64,000 nt of DNA from positions 186,001-250,000 of the forward strand of contig JAVBYI010000008.1 in the NCBI GenBank assembly GCA_030824115.1. The letters run 5' to 3'. The translations under genes and the position numbers were made by a program. This stretch comes from Rhodocyclaceae bacterium (GTDB taxonomy: Bacteria; Pseudomonadota; Gammaproteobacteria; Burkholderiales; Rhodocyclaceae). The notes below the pieces were generated by a model, which ran no database searches, was not told the origin of the DNA, and saw only the letters and a list, made by a program, of their open reading frames with translations. Within the stretch, counting starts at the first letter, position 1. The number at the start of each line of letters is the position of its first letter. Positions 45,412 through 50,785 of this stretch are shown in pieces.

Positions 45412-46203
45412 CTAGAAGCCGAACAGCCGCGCGAGTTCTGCGCCGGGGGACGGGGCGCGCATGAAGGCTTCGCCGACGAGGAAGGCATGCACGTTGTGCT
45501 GCTTCATCAGGGCGACATCCGCCGGGGCGAGGATGCCCGATTCGGTGATGACGATGCGGTCGGCGGGGATGCGGGCGAGTTGCGAGAGCGTGGTGTCGAG
45601 GCTGACCTCGAAGGTGCGCAGGTTGCGGTTGTTGATGCCCTGCAGTGGGGTCTTGAGCTTGAGCGCGCGGTCGAGTTCGCCGGCATCGTGGCTTTCGACG
45701 AGGACGGCCATGCCGAGCGAGAGGGCGAGGTCTTCGAGTTCGGCCATTTGCGTATCGGTGAGCGCGGCGACGATCAGCAGGATCGCGTCGGCGCCCATCG
45801 CGCGGGCTTCGTAGACCTGATAGGGGTCGATCATGAAGTCCTTGCGCAGCACCGGCAGGGCGCAGGCGGCACGGGCGGCTTGCAGGTATGCCGTGCAGCC
45901 CTGGAAGAACTGGCGGTCGGTGAGGACCGAGAGGCAGGCGGCGCCGTGCTTTTCGTAATCGGCGGCGATTTCGGCGGGATGGAAGTCGGGGCGGATGACG
46001 CCCTTCGAGGGGCTGGCCTTCTTGATTTCTGAAATGATTGCCGTCCCGCCAGCGCCGACTTTTGCTTTGATGGCACCGACGAAGTCGCGTGGCGTTGCTT
46101 GCGCTTCCGCCTCGGTGCGAATCGCGGCGAGCGGCTTGGCGGCTTGCGCGGTGGCGACTTCCTCGCGTTTCACCGCGAGAATCTTGTTCAGGATGTCGCT
46201 CAT
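45412..46203 (-). CDS. trpC: Indole-3-glycerol-phosphate synthase
   Basis: TrpC closes the indole ring in tryptophan synthesis. The 263-residue TIM barrel shows [42 protein letters not shown] and ITESGI, with catalytic Lys and Glu residues at the usual places. It is a monofunctional TrpC without the TrpF half. Residues 48-55 (KVGAGGTA) just before the first barrel strand come from a perfect 24-bp repeat; homologues have a segment of about the same length there. The ATG overlaps the trpD stop. Confidence 0.96.
46040..46063 (-). repeat. Interspersed 24-bp repeat inside trpC
   Basis: Perfect match. Read in frame as KVGAGGTA, immediately before the conserved [10 protein letters not shown] strand. 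Confidence 0.93.
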
Positions 46204-47222
46204 ACCTTGTTCGTGAAGGCGATGAACGCGTCGAGCTTGGCGCGTGCCTTGCCGCTTTCGATGGTCTGGCGCGCCAGCTTGATGCCGGCGCCGATGTCGG
46301 GCGCGAGGTTGGCGGCGTAGAGCGCGCTGCCGGCGTTGAGGCAGACGATCTCGAGTGCCGGGCCGGGCTGGTTTTCCAGCACGCCGAGCAGGCGGCCTTT
46401 CGATTCGGCGGCGTCGGCGACCTTGAGCGTGCGGTTGGAAATCATCGCCAGGCCGAAGTCCTCGGGATGCACTTCGTATTCGAGAATCTTGCCGTCCTTC
46501 AGTTCGCCCACCATCGTGGCGGCGCCGAGGGAGATTTCATCCATGCCGTCCTTGCCATACACCACCATGACGTGCTGCGCGCCGAGCTGCTGCATGACGC
46601 GCACGAGAATGCCGACGAGGTCGGGGTGGAAGACGCCGAGCAGCGTATTCGGTGCGCCGGCCGGGTTGGTCAGCGGGCCGAGGATGTTGAAGATGGTGCG
46701 CACGCCCATTTCCTTGCGCACCGGGGCGACGTTCTTCATCGCCGGGTGGTGGTTGGGCGCGAACATGAAGCCCATGCCCGTAGCCTTGATGCACTCGGCC
46801 ACTTGCGGCGCCTGCAGATCAATCTTCGCGCCGAGTGCTTCGAGCACGTCGGCGGCGCCGGATTTCGACGAGACGCCGCGATTGCCGTGCTTGGCGACAG
46901 TGGCGCCCGCGGCGGCGGTGACGAAGGCAGATGCGGTGGAAATGTTGAAGGTGTGCGAACCATCGCCGCCGGTGCCGACGATGTCGACGAAATGCGGATT
47001 GTGCGGGGTTTCAACCTTGGTACACAGTTCGCGCATCACCGTTGCGGCGGCGGCGATTTCGCCGATGGTTTCCTTTTTGACGCGCAGGCCGGTGAGGATC
47101 GCGGCCATCATCACGGGCGAGACGTCGCCCTTCATGATCAGCCGCATCAGATGCAGCATTTCGTCGTGGAAAATCTCGCGGTGCTCGATGGTGCGCTGAA
47201 GCGCTTCCTGCGGAGTGATCAT
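46200..47222 (-). CDS. trpD: Anthranilate phosphoribosyltransferase
   Basis: TrpD joins anthranilate to phosphoribosyl pyrophosphate. Family motifs are [19 protein letters not shown] near residue 80, [22 protein letters not shown] and [15 protein letters not shown] 47222 is preferred to TTG 47228, which overlaps the trpG stop. The stop overlaps the trpC start by four bases. Length 340 residues, as usual. Confidence 0.97.
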
Positions 47223-47224
47223 CT

Positions 47225-47791
47225 TCAAACGCCTTTCAAGAAGTTTTGCAGCAGCTGGTGGCCGTGCTCGGTCATGATCGATTCGGGATGGAACTGCACG
47301 CCCTGAATGGCATGTTCCTTATGACGCACGCCCATGATCTCGCCGTCCTCGGTCCACGCGGTCACTTCGAGGCAGGCGGGCAGCGTCTCGCGACGAATTG
47401 CCAGCGAGTGGTAGCGCGTCGCCTTGAAGGGATTGGGCAGATTGGCAAAGAGGCCGACGTTGGCATGCTGCACCGCCGAGACCTTGCCGTGCATCAGTTG
47501 CTTGGCATGGACAATCTCGCCGCCGAAGGCGTAGCCAATACTCTGGTGACCGAGACAGACGCCGAGGATCGGCAGCTTGCCGGCGAATTCCTTGATGGCG
47601 TCCACCGAAATGCCGGCTTCCTTGGGCGAACAGGGGCCGGGCGAAATCACCAGCTTGTCCGGCTGCATCGCGGCGATTTCCTTGAGCGTGATCGCGTCGT
47701 TGCGGAACACGCGCACGTCCTCGCCGAGTTCGCCGAAATACTGCACGAGGTTGTAGGTGAAGGAGTCGTAGTTGTCGATCATCAGCAACAT
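47225..47791 (-). CDS. trpG: Anthranilate synthase component II (glutamine amidotransferase)
   Basis: TrpG releases ammonia from glutamine for TrpE. The triad class I amidotransferase residues are visible: nucleophile Cys in [11 protein letters not shown], and His/Glu in [25 protein letters not shown] is the typical N terminus and [13 protein letters not shown] the oxyanion region. 188 residues. It lies ten bases after trpE and two before trpD. Confidence 0.97.
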
Positions 47792-47801
47792 GTCGTTCTC
47801 C

Positions 47802-49289
47802 TTATTCGAAACGCGTGTCGAGGCCGGATTCGGCCATCTCGGCGGCGCGCAGTTGCGCCTTCGCCTTGTTCAGCGTTTCCTGCCATTCGCTGTCGGGGTC
47901 GGAGTCGGCGACGATGCCGGCGCCGGCCTGGACGTGGATCTTGCCGTCCTTCAGCACGGCGGTGCGGATGGCGATGGCCAGATCCATGTCGCCATTGAAG
48001 CCGAGGTATCCCACTGCTCCCGCGTAAATTCCACGTTTTGTCGGCTCCAGTTCGTCGATGATTTCCATCGCGCGTACTTTCGGCGCACCGGAGACGGTGC
48101 CGGCGGGGAAGGTGGCCTTGAGCACCGAGACCGGGCCTTCGTCGTCCTTGAGTTCGCCTTCGACGTTGGAGACGATGTGCATGACATGGGAGTAACGCTC
48201 GATCATGTACTGGTCGGTGACTTTCACCGTGCCGATCTTGGCGACGCGGCCGATGTCGTTGCGACCGAGGTCGAGCAGTTGCAGGTGCTCGGAACGCTCC
48301 TTCTCGTCGGCGAGGAGTTCGGCGGCGAGGGCGGCATCCTCGGCGGCGGTGGCGCCGCGCTTGCGCGTGCCGGCGATCGGGCGTGCGGTGACTTTTCTGA
48401 TCTCCCCTTCGCCTTCGAGCCGCACCAGAATTTCCGGCGAGGCGCCGACGACCTGGAAGTCGCCGAAGTCGAAGAAGAACATGTAGGGCGACGGGTTGAG
48501 CGTGCGCAACGCCCGGTAAAGCGCCAGCGGACTCGCCGCATACGGCTTGCTCATGCGCTGCGAGAGGACGACCTGCATGACGTCGCCATCGACGATGTAC
48601 TGCTTGGCCTTCCTGACGGCGGCCTTGAAGTCCTCTTCGCTGAACTCAAAGGTCGGCGCTGACGGGACGGCAGCCGTGTCCATGGGAATGGTCGCCGGGG
48701 CACGCAGCTTGGCGAGCAGTTCCATGAGCCGTGCCTGCGCCTGTTTCCAGGCACCGGGAAAGCCCGGCTCGGCGAAGACGACGAGGGTCAGCTTGCCGGA
48801 GAGGTTGTCGACGATGGCAATTTCTTCCGACAGCAGCAGCAGGATGTCCGGCACACTGAGCGGGTCCGGCTTCTGCGTGTCCGCCAGCTTGGGTTCGATG
48901 AAACGCACCGTGTCGTAGCCGAAGTAGCCGACGAGACCGCCGCAAAAGCGCGGCAGGCCGGGGGTATCGGGCACCTTGAAGCGGGCCATGAACTCCGAGA
49001 CGAAGGACATCGGGTTGGTGTGCTCGCGGCGCTCGGCGACGCGGTTGCCGGAGAGCAGCAGGATGGTCGAGCCGCTGACGGAAATGCGCGTTGAGGTGGT
49101 CAGGCCGATGAAGGAGTAGCGGCCGAAGCGCTCGCCGCCCTGCACGGATTCGAGCAGGTAGGAATGCGGGCCTTCGGCGAGCTTGAGGTAGATCGAGAGC
49201 GGCGTGTCGAGATCGGCGAAGGTCTCGAGCGTGACGGGGATGCGGTTATAGCCTTCATGGGCCAACCGGTCGAAATCGGATTCTTTCAT
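47802..49289 (-). CDS. trpE: Anthranilate synthase component I
   Basis: TrpE converts chorismate to anthranilate. The start at 49289 ([14 protein letters not shown]) gives 495 residues. The N-terminal allosteric domain has the LLES element of the tryptophan site ([19 protein letters not shown]), and the chorismate-binding domain shows [21 protein letters not shown] and [18 protein letters not shown]. Feedback inhibition by Trp is expected. A 24-bp repeat encodes AVPSAPTF in the loop between the domains. The gene follows the trpL leader and attenuator. Confidence 0.97.
48648..48671 (+). repeat. Interspersed 24-bp repeat inside trpE
   Basis: Two mismatches. Read in frame by trpE as AVPSAPTF in the interdomain loop before [10 protein letters not shown]. 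Confidence 0.82.
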
Positions 49290-49299
49290 GACAACTCCA

Positions 49300-49363
49300 C
49301 AACAAAACTTGTAGGAAGGCGCATGTCCATGCATGCGCACTGGCAACGGAAACTCAGTGCCAG
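49300..49363 (-). promoter_or_regulatory. trp operon attenuator region
   Basis: Downstream of the trpL Trp codons, CTGGCA and TGCCAG (49358-49363 and 49340-49345) can pair over the leader stop. Further on, GCGCATG and CATGCGC (49332-49338 and 49319-49325) form a 7-bp stem with a six-base loop, followed by CTTCCTACAAGTTTTG. The T-run is weak, so terminator strength is uncertain, but the order leader peptide, pause stem, later stem matches classical attenuation. Confidence 0.6.
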
Positions 49364-49431
49364 GGTCGCCAGGGCCAGGCCTCGGCCTCGATGAGGCGGG
49401 CGGTCATAGGTGTTGTGGAGAGGGTGTTCAT
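49354..49431 (-). CDS. trpL: trp operon leader peptide
   Basis: A 25-codon open frame lies between gph and trpE. It begins MNTLSTTPM and ends Ala-Trp-Pro-Trp-Arg-Pro-Trp-His, giving three Trp codons within six positions just before the stop. The ATG overlaps the gph TGA (ATGA), so translation is probably coupled to gph since no Shine-Dalgarno sequence is seen. When charged tRNA-Trp is scarce, a ribosome stalled here should favour readthrough into trpEGDC. Too short for standard gene callers, but the Trp cluster and location are diagnostic. Confidence 0.83.
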   Translation of the reverse strand: MNTLSTTPMTARLIEAEAWPWRPWH

Positions 49432-50105
49432 TGTGTCTTGATCAGGCGTGCAGCGTCTGCAATGGACGAAACTATAGCATCGGCCGCCAGGCCTTGCACA
49501 TCCTGCCCCTCGTTGTAGCCGTAGGGCACCAGGAACACCTTGCAGCCGGCATTGCGGCCGGCATGAAAATCATGCAGCGAGTCGCCGATCATCAGCGTGT
49601 CGGCGGGTGAGACATTCATGCGCCCGCAGGCCCAGACCAGCGGCATCGGGTCGGGCTTCGGTTTGGGCAACTGGTCGCCGCTGACGGTGACGCTCATGTA
49701 GAGCATCAGGCCGGTGCGCTCCAGCAGCGGCACCGTGAAAGCTTGCGCCTTGTTGGTGATGACGCCTAGCGGCAGGCCCATTGCCTTGAAGGCGTCGAGA
49801 CCTTCGATCACGCCGGGGAACGGCTTGGCGGCGCGGCCGTTGAAATGCTCGTAATGCTTCTTGAAACTCGCCAGCGCATCAGCCGGCGGCGGGGTGGGAT
49901 CGTCCGCCGCTTCCAGCTTGCCGGCCAGCACGCGCTTGACGAGGTTGGGAATGCCTCGCCCGACATAGGCGCGGATTTCCTCGACTGCCACTGGCGGGCG
50001 GCCGAGGTCGGCGAGCATGCCGCAGGCAGCGGCATGCAGGTCGAGCACGGTGTCGAGCAGGGTGCCGTCCAGATCGAGCAGGACGGCTTTGATTGGCCTT
50101 GTCAA
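49428..50105 (-). CDS. gph: Phosphoglycolate phosphatase
   Basis: Gph dephosphorylates 2-phosphoglycolate, the product of RuBisCO oxygenase activity and of DNA repair. HAD motif I is [21 protein letters not shown]; later motifs are [12 protein letters not shown] and [19 protein letters not shown]. The start is a TTG at 50105 that overlaps the rpe TGA, so the two are coupled; no better ATG is seen before motif I. 225 residues. The rpe-gph-trpE order is common in betaproteobacteria. Confidence 0.94.
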
Positions 50106-50785
50106 ACTTTCGCCAGTTCGGCGCGCATGGCGGCGATGACGCTGTTGTAACGCTGCGGATCGCTGTCCTTGCCGGCGCCGAACACGGCCGAGCCGGCGAC
50201 GAAGGTGTCGACGCCCGCACGGGCCACATCGGCGATGTTGGCCGGGCCGACGCCGCCGTCGATTTCCAGTTCGACTTTCAGACCGCGATCATTAATCATC
50301 TTGCGTACGGCACGTGCCTTGTCGAGCACGTAGGGAATGAACTTCTGGCCGCCGAAGCCGGGGTTCACCGACATCAAGAGCACCATGTCGAGCTTGTCGA
50401 GCGTGTATTCGAGGACGTCGAGTGGCGTGGCGGGATTGAAGACGAGGCCGGCCTTGCAGCCGCATTCCTTGATCAGGCCGATGGTGCGGTCGACGTGCTC
50501 GGAAGCTTCCGGGTGGAAAGTGATGTAGGTGGCGCCGGCTTTGGCGAAGTCGGGGATGATGCGGTCGACCGGCTTGACCATCAGATGCACGTCGATGGGT
50601 GCGGTGACGCCATGCTTGCGCAGGGCTTCGCAGACCAGCGGGCCGATGGTGAGGTTGGGCACGTAGTGGTTGTCCATGACGTCGAAGTGCACGATGTCGG
50701 CGCCGGCGGCGAGGACGTTGTCGACTTCCTCGCCGAGCTTGGCAAAGTTGGCGGAAAGAATGGACGGCGCGATACGGTACGTCAT
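50102..50785 (-). CDS. rpe: Ribulose-phosphate 3-epimerase
   Basis: Rpe interconverts ribulose and xylulose 5-phosphate in the pentose phosphate and Calvin pathways. The 227-residue TIM barrel shows [58 protein letters not shown] and [11 protein letters not shown], with the metal-ligand His and Asp residues intact. GGAGGG precedes the ATG. First gene of the rpe-gph-trpLEGDC run; it is divergent from apaG. Confidence 0.97.

What the first reader, a model, noticed from the sequence alone, without database searches (positions are those of the whole stretch)
49300..49431. An unlisted trpL leader peptide with three Trp codons controls trpEGDC from within an rpe-gph operon
The 25-codon frame ending Trp-Pro-Trp-Arg-Pro-Trp-His lies between gph and trpE, its ATG overlapping the gph stop. 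Two stem structures follow in the order expected for attenuation. Coupling of the leader to gph translation, without its own ribosome binding site, would tie Trp attenuation to expression of a phosphoglycolate phosphatase, an unusual arrangement.
Basis: partly seen in the sequence, partly recalled or inferred. Interest (0 to 1): 0.55.

Follow-up and report, generated by a model that had tools for sequence, protein, structure and literature searches.

The report
Tryptophan leader peptide controlling trpE
A tiny tryptophan-rich gene in front of the tryptophan-synthesis genes of a proteobacterium is a real, conserved regulatory leader whose own coding sequence appears to fold over and hide the start signal of the next gene, and which several close relatives lack.

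Summary
The 25-codon frame (49431-49354, minus strand; [25 protein letters not shown]) is real and overlaps the gph stop as ATGA. A comparable Trp-rich frame arose in 9 of 20,000 shuffled gaps. Many Rhodocyclaceae keep a Trp-rich frame between gph and trpE, often ending EAWPWRPW: a genuine trp leader. (1) Coupling to gph: the ATGA overlap occurs in 10 of 52 leaders, and a -10-like element written with rare codons lies in the gph 3' end in 97 of 101 distinct loci (TGCTATAGT type in 67), so the leader probably has its own promoter. (2) Ordinary terminator attenuation: the second stem lacks a convincing U-tract. Instead the leader's 5' codons pair with the trpE ribosome-binding site, 10 perfect pairs here; predicted in 52 of 54 relatives, in 36 of 37 representatives against 11.6 expected from shuffles, and co-varying (swap test 0 of 20,000). 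The leader is absent in 11 of 19 genus genomes, including the nearest relative, which are not one clade. Verdict: a known kind of regulator in a variant with a leader-encoded Shine-Dalgarno lock. One ribosome stalled at Trp did not open that lock in the fold model, so the output step stays inferred.

The parts
49354..49431 (-). trpL leader ORF, 25 codons, Trp at codons 19, 21 and 24; ATG overlaps the gph stop (ATGA)
   Evidence: relatives; chance 9 of 20,000
49411..49420 (-). 5' strand of the SD-lock helix (CTCCACAACA, within leader codons 4-7)
   Evidence: MFE; P(SD paired with leader 5' part) 1.00; longest run 10 bp, 0.003 by 300 shuffles
49295..49304 (-). 3' strand of the SD-lock helix (TGTTGTGGAG), containing the trpE Shine-Dalgarno sequence
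49340..49372 (-). first stem (8 bp) with Trp codons 21 and 24 in its arm and loop
49319..49338 (-). second, GC-rich stem (7 bp, 6-nt loop) with a poor U-tract; candidate weak terminator
   Evidence: not listed as a terminator
49471..49479 (-). candidate extended -10 promoter element TGCTATAGT inside the 3' end of gph; predicted transcript start about 33 nt before the leader ATG (inferred)
   Evidence: GCTATAGT in 67 of 101 distinct loci; only copy of TGCTATAGT in the genome; rare codons
49428..50105 (-). gph, phosphoglycolate phosphatase
50102..50785 (-). rpe, ribulose-phosphate 3-epimerase
47802..49289 (-). trpE, anthranilate synthase component I
47225..47791 (-). trpG
46200..47228 (-). trpD
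45412..46203 (-). trpC

Best explanation
A ribosome-sensed tryptophan leader (trpL) controls trpEGDC. Step 1 (sequence evidence only): transcripts start at an extended -10 promoter inside the gph 3' end, as well as reading through from rpe-gph. Step 2 (strongly supported by comparison, not measured): the short Trp-rich ORF is translated and its Trp codons report charged tRNA-Trp. Step 3 (structure supported by comparison, function inferred): the leader's 5' codons are the complement of the trpE Shine-Dalgarno region, so an RNA without ribosomes on the leader's first half keeps trpE closed. Step 4 (inferred): when Trp is short, ribosomes queue behind the stalled one and occupy the leader's first half, which frees the trpE start; when Trp is ample they clear and the lock closes. 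Transcriptional read-through, by the weak stem or by Rho on untranslated RNA, may add to this.
For: Leader: Trp-rich frame in the gph-trpE gap in 6 of the 7 genus genomes with a gap over 100 nt, and a WPWR motif upstream of trpE in 44 of 66 trpE-tree rows. In 55 leaders the Arg codon after WPW has C as first base in 54 and all four bases at the wobble (22/13/10/9), both free of the search pattern: a protein-level signature. No TrpR or TRAP match in the genome; TrpR over its cut-off in 0 of 19 genus genomes. SD lock: P(SD paired with leader 5' part) above 0.5 in 52 of 54; 36 of 37 representatives against 11.6 expected with the 5' part shuffled; cognate duplexes -39.2 against -35.2 kcal/mol for swapped partners, 0 of 20,000 permutations as good. 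Control partners show no such preference: swapped partners as good or better in 4998 of 5000 (62 nt upstream of the leader) and 654 of 5000 (trpE codons 2-20). Cognate longest perfect run 7.49 against 6.37, 0 of 20,000. Promoter.
Against: Folding with one ribosome footprint stalled at the first Trp codon leaves the SD as masked as before (mean 0.92 to 0.92 over 54); stalled plus queued gives 0.79, stalled plus initiating 0.59. The Trp signal therefore does not open the lock simply, and queueing is an assumption. Leaders of other sequence types in the family do not clearly share the lock (18 of 43, of which 4 could not be scored and one is a duplicate; no shuffle control was run on them). In the upstream control real partners are worse than swapped ones, which I cannot explain. 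No expression data of any kind. Thermodynamic folding ignores co-transcriptional kinetics. Close relatives do without the leader.
Confidence: 0.5

Rival explanations
1. Classical transcription attenuation as in E. coli trp: the stem at 49338-49319 is an intrinsic terminator, a stalled ribosome favours an alternative pairing, and the SD lock is a secondary feature that only keeps trpE closed on untranslated RNA.
For: Leader, Trp codons in the first stem, and by my reading of the 32 sequences printed a GC-rich stem after the leader in most; some have better U-tracts, for example ...GCGCGCAGATTTTTCG in L107 and ...GCGCCGATTTTTCG in L098.
Against: In the window the stem is followed by CTTCCTACAAG and is not listed by the terminator scan. 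My own loose scan found candidates in 35 of 55 WPWR leaders and 40 of 45 others, mostly with weak U-tracts and often not at the homologous stem. The region after the stem is part of the conserved lock helix.
Confidence: 0.35
2. Rho-dependent attenuation: when trpE stays locked, the untranslated trpE mRNA is terminated by Rho, so the lock acts on transcription through loss of translation.
For: Weak intrinsic terminator and a masked trpE start; a published case joins uORF stalling, a masked ribosome-binding site and Rho in E. coli toiL-topAI (PMC12121999, passages seen).
Against: No Rho site was tested here.
Confidence: 0.15
3. The leader is a decaying remnant on its way to loss in this species, no longer regulating.
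For: The nearest relative (98% TrpE) and 10 other genus genomes lack it; weak terminator.
Against: Three Trp codons, intact frame, 10-bp perfect lock helix and a fold better than 194 of 200 shuffles. Window and nearest relative have diverged to about 92% in DNA, enough for an unneeded frame to begin to decay (inference).
Confidence: 0.1
4. Leader translation is driven only by ribosomes finishing gph (termination-reinitiation), tying Trp control to gph expression.
For: ATGA overlap and no visible Shine-Dalgarno before the leader.
Against: Overlap in 10 of 52; conserved promoter-like element downstream of the gph start in 97 of 101 distinct loci.
Confidence: 0.1

Closest known systems
E. coli-type trp leader / Trp attenuator (trpL; Rfam Trp_leader RF00513)
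   Same: Short ORF with clustered Trp codons before trpE, followed by stems
   Different: No Rfam match in the window; weak U-tract; the leader 5' codons pair with the trpE ribosome-binding site
LEU element of actinobacterial leuA (PMC1262725; abstract and passages seen)
   Different: There the regulatory Leu codons themselves pair with the SD, with a pseudoknot; here 5' codons upstream of the Trp codons pair, and the phylum and amino acid differ
toiL-topAI uORF of E. coli (PMC12121999; passages seen) and ermC-type translational attenuation (recalled)
   Same: Ribosome stalling on a short upstream ORF is proposed to unmask the next gene's ribosome-binding site
   Different: Those sense antibiotics; here the clustered codons are Trp and the gene makes Trp, and a single stall did not open the lock in the fold model
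Candidate attenuators of amino acid operons in proteobacteria (Vitreschak et al. 2004; seen only as a reference in PMC1262725; paper not read)
   Same: By its title, leader-type attenuation of amino acid operons in proteobacteria
   Different: Cannot say whether Rhodocyclaceae or an SD lock are covered; not available here

Membership tests
Trp leader peptide (ribosome-mediated attenuator) | Short ORF with clustered Trp codons directly upstream of a trp biosynthesis gene | tested here: met
Trp leader peptide (ribosome-mediated attenuator) | Trp codons conserved in relatives that keep the gap | tested here: met
   6 of 7 genus genomes with a gap over 100 nt; the 55-leader set was selected on two TGG codons, so their invariance there is by construction
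Classical transcription attenuator | Intrinsic terminator (GC stem plus U-tract) between leader and first gene | tested here: inconclusive
   GC stem present, U-tract poor in the window; variable in relatives
Classical transcription attenuator | Mutually exclusive antiterminator set by ribosome position | not tested
   No antiterminator was modelled or tested for covariation
Rfam Trp_leader RF00513 | Match at the gathering score | tested here: not met
   no Rfam match in the window; not filed under this family
Translational attenuator (SD masking) | Helix masking the SD of the regulated gene, conserved beyond chance | tested here: met
Translational attenuator (SD masking) | Ribosome stalled at the regulatory codons opens the helix | tested here: not met
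   a single stalled ribosome does not open it in an equilibrium fold model; partial opening with a queued or an initiating ribosome. So it is not filed as a member; it may still work like one
Translational attenuator (SD masking) | Trp-dependent expression | not testable with these tools
   needs reporter assays

The most novel reading that the evidence does not exclude
In one clade of Rhodocyclaceae the trp attenuator has been rebuilt as a translation lock. The leader's own 5' codons are under double constraint, as peptide-coding sequence and as the antisense of the trpE ribosome-binding region, so Trp starvation is read out by ribosome queueing on the leader rather than by a terminator. The device sits on a promoter hidden in the upstream gene and has been repeatedly lost, leaving gph overlapping trpE.
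Probability: 0.3. Interest if true: 0.6.

Novelty: new variant of a known kind. Interest (0 to 1): 0.45.

Why it matters
Trp attenuation is a textbook system known best from gamma-proteobacteria. Here is a betaproteobacterial-type family (Rhodocyclaceae) with leaders of several unrelated sequences before trpE, one type carrying a conserved, co-varying ribosome-binding-site lock made from the leader's coding sequence. No TrpR or TRAP was found in the window's genome, and no TrpR over the cut-off in 19 genus genomes. Within one genus, sister species with and without the leader give a natural experiment on what attenuation is worth.

Tried and rejected
Rfam gave nothing. Intrinsic terminator scans did not help: the loose scan found candidates in 35 of 55 WPWR leaders and 40 of 45 other gaps; it picks the best hairpin anywhere in the region and is not a test of the homologous stem. 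RNAalifold on MAFFT alignments of three clades showed few compensatory pairs in the lock, which I put down to blocks that shift between sequences; I used partner-swap and shuffle tests instead, and no covariance model was built. Recombination as the source of the window's leader was looked for by identity blocks along the operon: no clear jump, so not supported but not excluded. That three species which are not each other's sisters (L083, L084, L161) share the same 20-nt gph-trpE overlap junction is unexplained under independent loss. The class-wide promoter pattern (2 of 274) used TGYGAT and so could not match the window itself (GCCGAT); it shows only that this 14-mer is not class-wide. The EAWPWR DNA pattern was found in 86 of 297 family genomes and 12 of 274 class genomes; not every match lies before trpE and I did not check each.

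Rows dropped before counts. One search kept only loci with TrpE identity of at least 70% and a near-complete N-terminus. One search dropped truncated L058 and duplicate trpE sequences, leaving 66 rows; its 9 rows without the WPWR motif but with a gap were counted as leader-bearing, including L167, which has no Trp-rich frame. One search used 22 hand-chosen rows (17 of the genus, 5 outgroups; L167 left out as a long row, G576 truncated) and 21 for gph. One search counted 102 loci; one (L190) duplicates another (L040), so one search gives 101. One search used 48 of 55 leaders (identical 5' parts merged). One search used 43 of those 48 (five with an uncertain start or offset removed by hand). One search scored 54 of 55 (one without a GGAG). 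One search used 37 hand-picked representatives of 55, to thin near-duplicates. One search lists 43 leaders of other types, 4 without a scorable SD, one pair duplicate. The 55 leaders were found with the pattern TGG-CCN-TGG-NG, so those letters are fixed by construction; in some loci (for example L015, L024, L096, L108, L109, L182, L184) the leader or trpE start is uncertain by some codons.

Papers: PMC1262725 abstract and passages; PMC12121999, PMC3766115, PMC5343134 and PMC2965389 passages only; the others seen only as search listings with starts of abstracts. No paper on a trp leader in Rhodocyclaceae appeared in those ten searches, which cover only open-licence PMC texts.

Full report
What is there. 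On the minus strand between gph and trpE lies a 25-codon frame, [25 protein letters not shown], at 49431-49354. Its ATG overlaps the gph stop in ATGA. The neighbours are rpe, gph, trpE, trpG, trpD and trpC. In dinucleotide-shuffled copies of the gap a frame of 10-60 codons with three or more Trp in its last eight codons appeared in 9 of 20,000. The gap folds better than most shuffles (z -2.3, 6 of 200 as good).

Where it comes from. The window's nearest named relatives are metagenome assemblies labelled Rhodocyclaceae, TrpE up to 98% identical. In all 19 genomes of its genus trpE was found. By the gph-trpE gap six carry the leader (G000, G247, G571, G575, G211, G574), eleven have no gap at all (gph overlapping trpE by 4 or 20 nt: G126, G187, G286, G274, G260, G159, G080, G570, G572, G573, G019), one has a 124-nt gap without a Trp-rich frame (G231), and one is truncated there (G576). 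All six leaders end in EAWPWRPW plus one residue. Beyond the genus, 44 of 66 rows of the trpE tree have the WPWR motif upstream, and 86 of 297 family genomes hold the EAWPWR DNA pattern against 12 of 274 class-wide (not each match was checked for trpE). Other members of the family, Thauera among them, have Trp-rich frames of different sequence, for example CWRGGWRWPLGH.

Selection on the peptide. In 55 leaders the Arg codon after WPW has C as first base in 54 and all four bases at the wobble position (22, 13, 10, 9), and the Ala codon before varies at the wobble (39, 12, 2, 1). The two TGG codons are invariant there, but the set was chosen by them.

Loss. On careful trees of trpE and of the gph body for 22 and 21 hand-chosen rows, five changes are needed in each. 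The 11 leader-less rows as one clade are rejected (p-AU 7e-85 for trpE, 1.6e-4 for gph). On the 66-row tree the minimum is nine (quick tree). The window and its nearest relative, G126, are sisters in both trees; one has the leader and the other does not. The outgroup rows carry leaders, so losses are the simplest reading. However, three species that are not each other's sisters share the same 20-nt overlap junction, so some transfer of the region between species is possible.

Own promoter. The gph 3' end contains TGCTATAGT, an extended -10 hexamer (consensus recalled), at 49479-49471. Of 101 distinct loci with a known gph end, 67 have GCTATAGT there, 17 CTACTATC, 13 TAGTATC and 4 none of these. 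GCTATAGT is in 40 of 40 WPWR rows with a known gph end, 11 of 13 leader-less rows, 2 of 9 rows of other type and 14 of 39 further distinct family loci. In the second type I read TGGACA 18 bases upstream as a -35 (by eye). The codons used are rare: ATA is 4.6% of Ile, GCT 7% of Ala and CTA 2.1% of Leu in 29 long ORFs of the window. TGCTATAGT occurs once in the genome, here; the pattern read backwards occurs 12 times. The tool's strict promoter scan did not list this site, having no good -35. This is evidence for a promoter, not proof. It weakens the proposal that leader translation is tied to gph, as does the position of the leader start: an ATGA overlap in 10 of 52, otherwise from -32 to +102 nt.

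The Shine-Dalgarno lock. The minimum-energy fold of the window's leader RNA pairs CTCCACAACA (within leader codons 4-7) with TGTTGTGGAG, which contains the trpE Shine-Dalgarno sequence. Across WPWR leaders the SD is predicted to pair with the leader's 5' part with probability above 0.5 in 52 of 54. Shuffling only the 5' part of 37 representatives drops this to an expected 11.6 against 36 observed. Swapping partners among 48 distinct leaders worsens the duplex from -39.2 to -35.2 kcal/mol on average, 0 of 20,000 permutations reaching the observed value. With trpE codons 2-20 as partner swapped pairs are as good in 654 of 5000; with the 62 nt upstream of the leader in 4998 of 5000, that is, real partners there pair worse than swapped ones, which I cannot explain. 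Longest perfect runs agree (7.49 against 6.37, 0 of 20,000; 20 of 43 cognates have 8 bp or more against 14% of swapped pairs). Paired blocks differ between species, for example ACGAAAGTC with GACTTTCGT, CTACGAAGA with TCTTCGTAG, CGACAAGG with CCTTGTCG, CCACAAAGCAA with TTGCTTTGTGG. In Rhodocyclaceae leaders of other sequence types the lock is seen in 18 of 43 (4 unscorable, one duplicate, no shuffle control), so it looks like a property of this clade.

How it may work, and what speaks against it. The genome has no TrpR or TRAP match, and there is no TrpR over the family cut-off in any of 19 genus genomes, with one sub-threshold match in G576; this agrees with a published survey in which TrpR is conserved in gamma-proteobacteria and absent in other classes (PMC5343134, passages). 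A Trp-sensing leader is therefore the likely control. A simple stall-opens-the-lock model is not supported: masking one ribosome footprint at the first Trp codon leaves the SD masked (0.92 to 0.92, mean of 54), a queued second ribosome lowers it to 0.79, a stalled plus an initiating ribosome to 0.59. So the lock answers to ribosomes on the first half of the leader, and Trp starvation would act through queueing. Terminator-based attenuation remains a serious rival: a GC-rich stem follows the leader in most sequences printed and some have fair U-tracts, but the window's is poor.

Known and new. Trp leader peptides are classical. Pairing of leader codons with the next gene's Shine-Dalgarno box is described for the actinobacterial LEU element (PMC1262725), and unmasking of a ribosome-binding site by stalling in an upstream ORF is proposed for toiL-topAI (PMC12121999). 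My ten searches of open-licence papers turned up no description of this arrangement for trp or for Rhodocyclaceae, but the 2004 survey of proteobacterial attenuators was not available to me. I file it as a new variant of a known kind: a Trp leader peptide, with an SD lock that works like, but is not shown to be, a translational attenuator.

Noticed in passing
window 49479-49471 (-): Extended -10 element TGCTATAGT inside gph, made with rare codons; GCTATAGT in 67 of 101 distinct loci, CTACTATC in 17 and TAGTATC in 13 at the gph 3' end.
   Followed up: partly
L083, L084, L161 (gph-trpE junctions): Three species that are not each other's sisters share the same 20-nt gph-trpE overlap with near-identical junction (TGATCCAGCATGAAAGAA); independent loss would hardly give this.
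   Followed up: no
L004, L005, L010, L039, L048 downstream of trpE: Identity with the window falls to about 50% or coverage is lost soon after the trpE end, so trpGDC seems not to follow trpE directly in these relatives.
   Followed up: no
L167 (G231): A genus member with a 124-nt gph-trpE gap but no Trp-rich frame; possibly a decayed leader.
   Followed up: no
L036-L044, L057, L185-L239: Rhodocyclaceae outside the WPWR clade have Trp-rich frames of several unrelated sequences before trpE (WRGGWRWPLGH, WRRWRSWPAGH, NEWHGWRPWRR), often with GTG starts.
   Followed up: partly
whole genome G000: TGCTATAGT occurs once, the reversed control 12 times: such -10-like words may be avoided elsewhere.
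   Followed up: no
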